64,000 bases of DNA from the NCBI GenBank assembly GCA_008933995.1, contig WARS01000071.1:7279018-7343017 (forward strand), read 5' to 3'. A program made the translations under genes and the position numbers. Numbering within the stretch: the first letter of the stretch is position 1; every line of letters begins with the position of its first letter. This DNA comes from Datnioides undecimradiatus. Its lineage: Eukaryota > Chordata > Actinopteri > Lobotiformes > Datnioididae. This document shows, in pieces, positions 29,844 to 52,159 of this stretch. Under the pieces are notes generated by a model that ran no database searches, was not told the DNA's origin, and saw only the letters and a list, made by a program, of their open reading frames with translations.

Positions 29844-50424
<20,581 letters not shown>

Positions 50425-50438
<14 letters not shown>

Positions 50439-50466
50439 GTCTAAATATTAGACATGCAGGAGCTTG
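50425..50466 (-). promoter_or_regulatory. col2a1: Collagen-type 5' stem-loop enclosing the start codon
   Basis: On the transcript a perfect 9-bp inner stem CATGTCTAA / TTAGACATG (plus 50448-50456 and 50436-50444, loop of 3 nt) ends on the initiator ATG. A 4/3 asymmetric internal loop (CCTG / TTC) separates it from an outer AAGCT / AGCTT stem (50461-50465 and 50428-50432). A four-codon uORF (M-S-N-I-stop) lies inside and ends two bases before the main ATG. This is the layout of the LARP6-bound 5' stem-loop of type I and III collagen mRNAs. Confidence 0.65.
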
Positions 50467-50637
50467 GGTGAGAAGTGAAGTGACGGACGAGACCAGGCTT
50501 TCAGTCAGCGGTGTGTTAAGTGTGTGTTCCCAGAGACTTATGGCACCATGCAGTCAAACCCTCCAAAATCTAAGTGGAATCCAACGCGGGGCCCCAGCTG
50601 GCACTCTGCACCCACCGCGTCAGGGCAAGCACCGCGG

Positions 50638-50643
50638 TTTTAT
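50638..50643 (-). promoter_or_regulatory. col2a1: col2a1 TATA-like box
   Basis: CATAAAACC on the minus strand, flanked by GC-rich sequence, about 200 nt upstream of the ATG. Initiation near 50605-50612 would give a 5' UTR of about 170 nt, similar to other fibrillar collagens. This UTR also contains a three-codon uORF starting at 50549 (M-V-P-stop). Confidence 0.45.
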
Positions 50644-52159
50644 GTCCACTGTGCCTTGTATGGATCTTCGTATATTCCAAAATACCAGTCCTTCCCCCAG
50701 ACCCCCTGTCAGGCTGAAACCTGAACCTCATCTCCCTCCCCTCAATCCAACAGCATCTACTCTCCCAGGGATTTTTTTAAACTCAAGCCCTCCTTCCTTG
50801 ACCTGCTTGGCCTGGCCTGGCCTGGCCTGGCCAAGAGATGCACCTTCACTTTCACATTAAAAGGGGAGCTACAAGCAGCAGAGCACAGGTCAAGCACTGA
50901 CTCAGCTACATGTCATTGTGTCAGTGAATTAAAATTTGTAGAAGTTTCAGCTAATCTTCAGGGCCACTCTCTCTGTTAGAATGACCAACATGTGGTATAG
51001 TAAAAGTAATTGCTTTCTTGTGGACAATCCCATGAATCTGAAGTACACATTGTTAGATTTGTTAGATTCACCATTGAGATATAAATTGAAATTAAATAAA
51101 TATGTTATGGTGTACCTCTGCATGATAAAAATATGTTCTACTGCTTGACAATGCGGAAACTGATTACAGACAAATTTAAGTACTGCCTTAATCACATGAG
51201 CTAAACTATGTTGTAGGTCATGATAAAAATCACCCTCACCCAATCAATAGACCTGGCCAGAAAACAGTCTTTCTAATCCTCTGTTGGACTTTTCTAAAAA
51301 AAATTTACTAAAAAACTGGAAGATAGCTGAAACTCCCCAAAGTATGTATGAGAAAAACCTGTAAGGTTTGCTATTTACCAATAAAATATTAGTGAAACTA
51401 TTATGGACAGTGTGTGAGACCGTTTTTCTCTAACTGAGCTATAGTGACAGATGTTCTAGTTAACTTATCACTGTGGCTAGTTATGCCTGACTGCTTAATA
51501 AAGCTTGAAATCTTTTTTTGTACAGGTCTCAAATACTAAGGACAAAAAAATGAATGCCATTTTTGTAGACTAATGAAGTGAAGTTATGGGAACCCAATAC
51601 TGGGTCAGTGAGGTTGTTTGTTTCAGTCTAGTCTCTTGGATTATGGATTAATCTGCAGACCTTGGACAACCTTAAAGTGTTGAGTTGACCAATCGAGTGA
51701 GGTTATGTCATGTTCACACTGCAGGCAAACCTTCTGAGAACCTTGTCTGTTTGGACAAAGGCCATTGACAAGAGGTTGTGAGATCTAGTTAAAAGAACAA
51801 TCCTCCTGTGCCTCACATAGAAAGGAAATCTTCCCTTGTGTTAAAAATACATTTTCCACATTCAGCAGTTACACACTGTGTTCACGTCAGTTGATCACTT
51901 GCTTATAAGCAATTTAATTGTCCAGTAGGTCTGTCAAAATATATAAACCTACATAGCAGCATTCCAGACAAAATAGCACATATATGCCAGAACTACCTAT
52001 TGTGAAGCTGAGCCAGAAGGGTGATGAAATGTCTGTGTGATCTTTATCATGTACTCCTCTTTAGATAGGCCCAGGTGAGTGGGCTTGAAAGGAGGTCTTT
52101 GTCATGAGGAGAGGCACTGTAATTCCAGGGTCACGACCCTCTAGAAAGCCCCCTCATTC

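What the first reader, a model, noticed from the sequence alone, without database searches (positions are those of the whole stretch)
50425..50466. A type I/III collagen 5' stem-loop around the start codon of a type II collagen gene
Seen: the transcript folds as a 9-bp perfect inner stem (CATGTCTAA/TTAGACATG), an asymmetric 4/3 internal loop and a 5-bp outer stem, with the initiator ATG in the inner stem and a four-codon uORF inside. The first coding bases ATGTTCAGCTTTGTGG and residues MFSFVD match what I remember of human COL1A1, not human COL2A1 (MIRLGAPQ). Known: the 5' stem-loop of COL1A1, COL1A2 and COL3A1 is bound by LARP6 and couples translation to chain folding; it is described as a type I/III feature. 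Inference: the ancestral fibrillar collagen had it, fish col2a1 kept it and mammalian COL2A1 lost it, so col2a1 could be under LARP6 control in fish.
Basis: partly seen in the sequence, partly recalled or inferred. Interest (0 to 1): 0.78.

Follow-up and report, generated by a model that had tools for sequence, protein, structure and literature searches.

The report
Collagen start-codon hairpin in fish col2a1
In one fish-like genome the RNA hairpin that wraps the start codon of type I and III collagen messages also wraps the start codon of two type II (cartilage) collagen genes, with its tiny upstream reading frame intact but the LARP6 landing site altered.

Summary
The hairpin is real and not chance: minus strand, CATGTCTAA-TAT-TTAGACATG, initiator ATG at 50438-50436, exon 1 of a type II collagen gene. 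An exact pattern search of this unnamed 581-Mb assembly (by inference a teleost) finds the core plus first coding bases at six places. All six lie at starts of fibrillar collagen genes: two col2a1, two col1a1, col1a2 and one col3a1/col5a2-like gene. The 18 untranslated bases before the ATG are identical in the window gene, the second col2a1 and one col1a1; flanking blocks match at 11 of 18 or fewer. Pairs covary. All six genes carry two 3-5-codon uORFs; the second lies in the hairpin and stops 2 bases before the main ATG. Three papers say no collagen mRNA other than I and III has this element. The LARP6 inference is weakened: the bulge A needed for binding is missing in both col2a1 copies; the three type I genes keep all five critical bases. 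My reading: a start-codon hairpin plus mini-uORF that gates initiation across these collagens, with an intact LARP6 site only in type I. One genome; no transcript or binding data.

The parts
50448..50456 (-). 5' arm of the inner stem, CATGTCTAA (untranslated)
50445..50447 (-). apical loop TAT
50436..50444 (-). 3' arm of the inner stem, TTAGACATG, ending in the initiator ATG (50438-50436)
50441..50455 (-). uORF2 inside the hairpin, ATG TCT AAT ATT TAG (MSNI*), stop 2 bases before the main ATG
50461..50465 (-). 5' side of outer stem, AAGCU
50428..50432 (-). 3' side of outer stem, AGCUU (coding); its A and G are the B2 bases that the type I genes leave unpaired in the short fold
50457..50460 (-). 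5' strand of the internal loop, CCUG (B1 region; the A of type I is absent)
50433..50435 (-). 3' strand of the internal loop, UUC (B2 region)
50538..50549 (-). uORF1, ATG GTG CCA TAA (MVP*)
   Evidence: lies between the TATA-like box and the hairpin
50638..50644 (-). TATA-like box CATAAAA at -206, so the 5' UTR is estimated at about 175 nt (inferred, no transcript data)
50345..50438 (-). coding part of exon 1, signal peptide [31 protein letters not shown], then GTAAGT
48183..48389 (-). exon 2, VWC module (type II N-propeptide; ends approximate)
29844..50438 (-). type II collagen coding region: exon 1, VWC, Gly-X-Y exons, telopeptide, COLFI domain, stop

Best explanation
Shown: two col2a1 genes of this genome carry a homologue of the collagen 5' stem-loop, with the initiator AUG in its 3' arm and a mini-uORF inside it whose stop lies 2 bases before the AUG; the same plan occurs at all six places found. 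Inferred: the hairpin and mini-uORF form a start-codon gate. The stem hides the AUG from scanning ribosomes; a ribosome that starts at the weak upstream AUG melts the stem while translating 3-5 codons, terminates beside the main AUG and may restart there. In type I mRNAs LARP6 grips the bulge and puts this gate under its control. In col2a1 the bulge has changed, so the gate probably works without LARP6 or with weaker binding.
For: Six exact genome-wide hits, all at fibrillar collagen starts, 0 in the reversed-pattern control (the tool calls its counts lower bounds). 18 of 18 untranslated bases identical between the window gene and the second col2a1, and with col1a1 on C20, against at most 11 of 18 in 11 flanking blocks even with shifts of up to 12; 16 of 29 fourfold sites identical between the two col2a1 copies in one C-propeptide exon. 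Pair counts on six sequences: 92.5% of cells paired (2 of 500 shuffles reach it), 6 cells changed on both sides (2 of 500), covariation score 0.244 (1 of 500); the best slid version pairs 60%. Two short uORFs in 6 of 6 genes; the gap between CATGTCT and AGACATG is 7, 7, 7, 10, 7 and 4, so the uORF2 frame is kept. Type I mRNAs are printed as having two short uORFs. In 6 of 6 the main AUG has G at -3 and uAUG2 a pyrimidine. LARP6 site. The inner stem stays at 0.98 or more pair probability in the estimated 5' UTR of both col2a1 genes.
Against: One genome; transcription starts are inferred from TATA-like boxes (five of six genes). The frame argument rests on two length changes (col1a2 -3, col1a1 on C489 +3), the covariation on six paralogues with few changes; seven of ten inner pairs never vary. 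The outer stem of the window gene has a mismatch. In the long-context fold the col1a2 hairpin falls to about 0.56 (37 C) and 0.26 (25 C), the col1a1 C489 bulge is only partly open, and the window's own bulge is less sharply defined, so the open/closed contrast is clear only in 62-nt folds. The circled bases of the review figure were not visible; that B1 A is the A six bases before CATG is deduced from the type I sequences here. A human 5' UTR survey states that its hyperconserved elements, one of which contains the COL1A1 LARP6 site, do not overlap uORFs (passage), which speaks against uORF2 as a selected feature. Ribosome behaviour is not tested.
Confidence: 0.6

Rival explanations
1. Full type I-like LARP6 element: fish Larp6 binds the col2a1 hairpin and controls type II collagen synthesis.
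For: Stem, spacing and B2 UUCAG are the same as in col1a1. A Larp6 La motif that keeps Q99, Y103, F114, T133 and F135 (F102 is Y) is present on C495; a second, more diverged one on C9.
Against: No A in B1 of either col2a1 copy; B2 A and G (window) or G (C315) predicted paired in the short fold; printed single mutations at these bases abolished binding. [quoted passage not shown]
Confidence: 0.25
2. Relic: the hairpin is an inherited leftover in col2a1 without function, conserved only because its 3' arm is coding.
For: Human and mouse COL2A1 have another start. LARP6 contacts are altered in both copies.
Against: The last 18 untranslated bases are 18 of 18 identical between copies whose fourfold sites are 16 of 29 identical in one exon; a relic arm should have drifted.
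Confidence: 0.1
3. Short gene conversion between col1a1 and col2a1 copied the element recently.
For: 37 of 38 bases identical between C20 col1a1 and the window gene, the only blastn match in two 3-kb stretches.
Against: It must have hit both col2a1 copies; both share a B1 ending CCUG that differs from col1a1.
Confidence: 0.05

Closest known systems
Collagen 5' stem-loop (5'SL) of COL1A1, COL1A2 and COL3A1 mRNAs
   Same: Start codon in the 3' arm, inner stem CATGTCT/AGACATG, outer stem using the first coding codons, bulge in the same register, two short uORFs
   Different: It sits in type II genes; the B1 strand reads CUCCU or GCCCU instead of AGUCU/AAUCU, and part of B2 is predicted paired in the short fold; the hairpin is estimated at about 145-150 nt from the cap instead of the printed 75-85
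LARP6 binding site on type I collagen mRNA
   Same: B2 C, A and G present in sequence
   Different: B1 A absent in both col2a1 copies; binding untested

Membership tests
Collagen 5' stem-loop (structural family) | Stem-loop that encompasses the start codon, two stems flanking a bulge | tested here: met
Collagen 5' stem-loop (structural family) | Sequence and pairing conserved with type I elements | tested here: met
   against type I genes of the same genome; a printed COL1A1 primer
Collagen 5' stem-loop (structural family) | Accompanied by two short uORFs | tested here: met
   printed for type I; assumes transcription starts near the TATA-like box
Collagen 5' stem-loop (structural family) | Located 75-85 nt from the cap | tested here: inconclusive
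   about 145-150 nt if transcription starts 30 bases after the TATA-like box at -206; no transcript data
LARP6 target | Critical B2 bases C, A, G present and single-stranded | tested here: inconclusive
   present in sequence in both copies; A and G paired in the window gene, G paired in C315, in 62-nt folds; less sharp for the window gene in the long fold
LARP6 target | Critical B1 bases U and A | tested here: not met
   no A in B1 of either copy; U at -2 before CATG kept, U at -4 changed to C
LARP6 target | Binds LARP6 | not testable with these tools
   needs gel shift or CLIP

The most novel reading that the evidence does not exclude
The start-codon hairpin with its frame-kept mini-uORF is an ancestral, LARP6-independent translation switch of the clade A fibrillar collagens (types I, II and III and perhaps V); LARP6 uses it only on type I mRNAs through the bulge, and mammalian COL2A1 lost the switch altogether.
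Probability: 0.35. Interest if true: 0.75.

Novelty: new variant of a known kind. Interest (0 to 1): 0.57.

Why it matters
Three papers state that this stem-loop occurs in no mRNA other than those of collagen types I and III (passages). Here it is in two type II genes, with the LARP6 contacts changed and the hairpin plus uORF unchanged. That separates two functions usually treated as one and gives a natural variant for testing what the hairpin does without LARP6.

Tried and rejected
Rfam scan of the window: no family reached its threshold. Exact pattern scans of genome contigs and viral contigs: 0 hits; these are microbial and viral collections, so cross-species conservation could not be tested. 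Searches for printed sequence strings: 3 papers, all opened; 55 papers held a term, 40 listed, one listed paper opened, PMC13398859, whose match was a medaka il1b primer. Topic searches: 3 papers; 31, 30 listed; 99, 30 listed; 263, 8 listed; none; 8,456, 8 listed; 14, 5 listed; 13, 8 listed. No title or abstract start listed describes a stem-loop in a type II collagen mRNA; these are capped listings plus the passages cited. The primary papers (Cai 2010, Stefanovic 2014, Castro 2017) are not held, so no claim is made beyond these searches. Papers seen as passages: PMC4813270 (plus its section 4 whole), PMC7055395, PMC6344531, PMC4085608, PMC13031558, PMC9839813, PMC12611027, PMC12564778, PMC2716783, PMC13398859, PMC7484617, PMC8887668; PMC4288179 passages and one section. 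Recalled, not from calls: human COL1A2, COL3A1 and COL5A2 letters, human gene neighbourhoods. I first called the C468 gene col3a1: its start MMSFV is like printed human COL3A1 and its C-propeptide exon matches COL3A1 best in the PDB (no COL5A2 there), but telopeptide and C-propeptide look like COL5A2 from recall, and exon 1 lies 19 kb before the VWC exon on the same strand, so that they form one gene is likely, not proven. No hairpin with an M-x-S-F start was found in the fetched 20 kb around the VWC exons on C483, but its first exon was not located.

Full report
What is there. The window lies at C496:7279018-7343017 of a 581-Mb assembly without a name. By inference it is a teleost: it has two col2a1, two col1a1 and two larp6-like genes. 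On the minus strand, from about 50.6 kb down to 29.8 kb, lies a type II procollagen gene. Exon 1 encodes the signal peptide [31 protein letters not shown]. A VWC exon follows, then Gly-X-Y exons, the telopeptide and the C-propeptide with stop, COLFI by Pfam. Type II rather than type I rests on the VWC match, the telopeptide [20 protein letters not shown] (the two col1a1 genes here read differently) and printed human type II epitopes. The C-propeptide matches type I and III in the PDB, where no type II C-propeptide was among the matches. Neighbouring exons match aladin, a protein kinase, a KH protein and glutaminase (the aladin exon is below that family's cut-off for a whole protein).

The hairpin. 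Perfect 9-bp stems ending in ATG occur at 8 of 7,289 ATGs examined, and all 8 are four collagen start hairpins seen from both strands. At 7 bp the count is 24, of which 12 are the six collagen hairpins on both strands and 12 are background.

Relatives in the same genome. An exact pattern (CATGTCT, 4-13 bases, AGACATG, then NTSAGCTT) hits six places in the whole genome and none with the pattern reversed (counts are lower bounds by the tool's own note). They are the window gene; a second col2a1 on C315; col1a1 on C20 and C489; col1a2 on C480; and a gene on C468 with start MMSFV. The C315 gene is type II: its telopeptide is [20 protein letters not shown], with the printed type II epitope EKGPDPL exactly, and its first 30 residues match the window's at 26, against 11 for either col1a1. 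The C468 gene is col3a1/col5a2-like: start like printed human COL3A1 MMSFVQ, C-propeptide exon closest to COL3A1 in the PDB, but COL5A2-like to my recollection; if it is col5a2 the element reaches type V too. Between the window gene and C20 col1a1 a 38-base stretch with 37 identities is the only blastn match in 3 kb. The last 18 untranslated bases are 18 of 18 identical in the window gene, C315 and C20, while the next 11 blocks of 18 match at 11 or fewer even when shifted. Fourfold-degenerate sites of one C-propeptide exon are 16 of 29 identical between the two col2a1 copies. On the six-sequence alignment 92.5% of cells pair, six cells change on both sides, and 1 of 500 shuffles reaches the covariation score (with five sequences and 15 pairs, 0 of 500). 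One such change is in the second col2a1, where codon 5 is ATG instead of GTG and its outer-stem partner is U instead of C.

uORFs. Each of the six genes has, in its last 200 untranslated bases, two ATGs, each opening a 3-5-codon uORF. The first lies at -68 to -111 (at -111 in both col2a1 copies); the second starts in the hairpin's 5' arm and its stop ends 2 bases before the main ATG. The gap between CATGTCT and AGACATG is 7, 7, 7, 10, 7 and 4, so its two length changes keep the frame. Type I collagen mRNAs are printed as having two short uORFs. In all six the main AUG has G at -3 and uAUG2 has a pyrimidine there. TATA-like boxes lie upstream of the first uORF in five of six genes, so both uORFs are probably transcribed; this is inferred. 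Against this, a survey of human 5' UTRs says that its hyperconserved elements, one of which contains the COL1A1 LARP6 site, do not overlap uORFs (passage).

LARP6. The review gives five critical bases: B1 U and A, B2 C, A and G. In 62-nt folds the three type I genes leave B1 (AGUCU or AAUCU) and B2 (UCAG) unpaired at 0.9 or more. The window col2a1 has B1 CUCCU with B2 A and G paired (0.12, 0.00 unpaired); C315 has GCCCU with B2 G mostly paired (0.19) and A open; the C468 gene differs too. In longer folds the contrast is less clean, and the col1a2 hairpin itself drops to about 0.56 or 0.26 depending on temperature, while the inner stem of both col2a1 genes stays at 0.98 or more. The firm point is therefore in the sequence: no A in B1 of either col2a1. 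Type III is printed as binding LARP6 with lower affinity, and the zebrafish type I genes as all keeping the element. A larp6 La motif on C495 keeps Q99, Y103, F114, T133 and F135 (F102 is Y), and one on C9 differs at F102, Y103 and F135.

Judgement. Homology with the type I element is well supported within this genome (about 0.93). That the hairpin and uORF2 act as a start-codon gate is the likeliest mechanism but is inferred (about 0.55). LARP6 control of col2a1 is possible, not supported (about 0.25). The printed statement that no other collagen mRNA has this element does not hold for this genome.

Noticed in passing
G000:C483:3219184-3224244 (loci L008-L012, L031), C-propeptide at C483:3207831-3208345: Five VWC exons in a row upstream of a fibrillar collagen C-propeptide that reads GETCISANP, COL5A2-like as I recall; a paper on fibrillar collagens describes clade A genes with a VWC domain or none (passage).
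   Followed up: partly
window 50664-50678 (minus) and the matching place in L024: GGAATATACGAAGAT is identical and starts 34 bases upstream of the CATAAAA box in both col2a1 copies: a conserved promoter block.
   Followed up: partly
window about 50808-50832: Short GGCCT-type tandem repeat in the upstream region of the collagen gene.
   Followed up: no
window about 6.0-8.4 kb (+), 15.5-17.1 kb (-), 23.6-27 kb (+), 62.3-63 kb (+): Exons of a KH-domain protein, a protein kinase, aladin and glutaminase flank the collagen gene; I recall human counterparts on 12q13, as for COL2A1.
   Followed up: partly
L071 (G000:C9:4520600-4521100): The second larp6-like La motif differs at positions (F102, Y103, F135) that human LARP6 needs for RNA binding.
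   Followed up: partly
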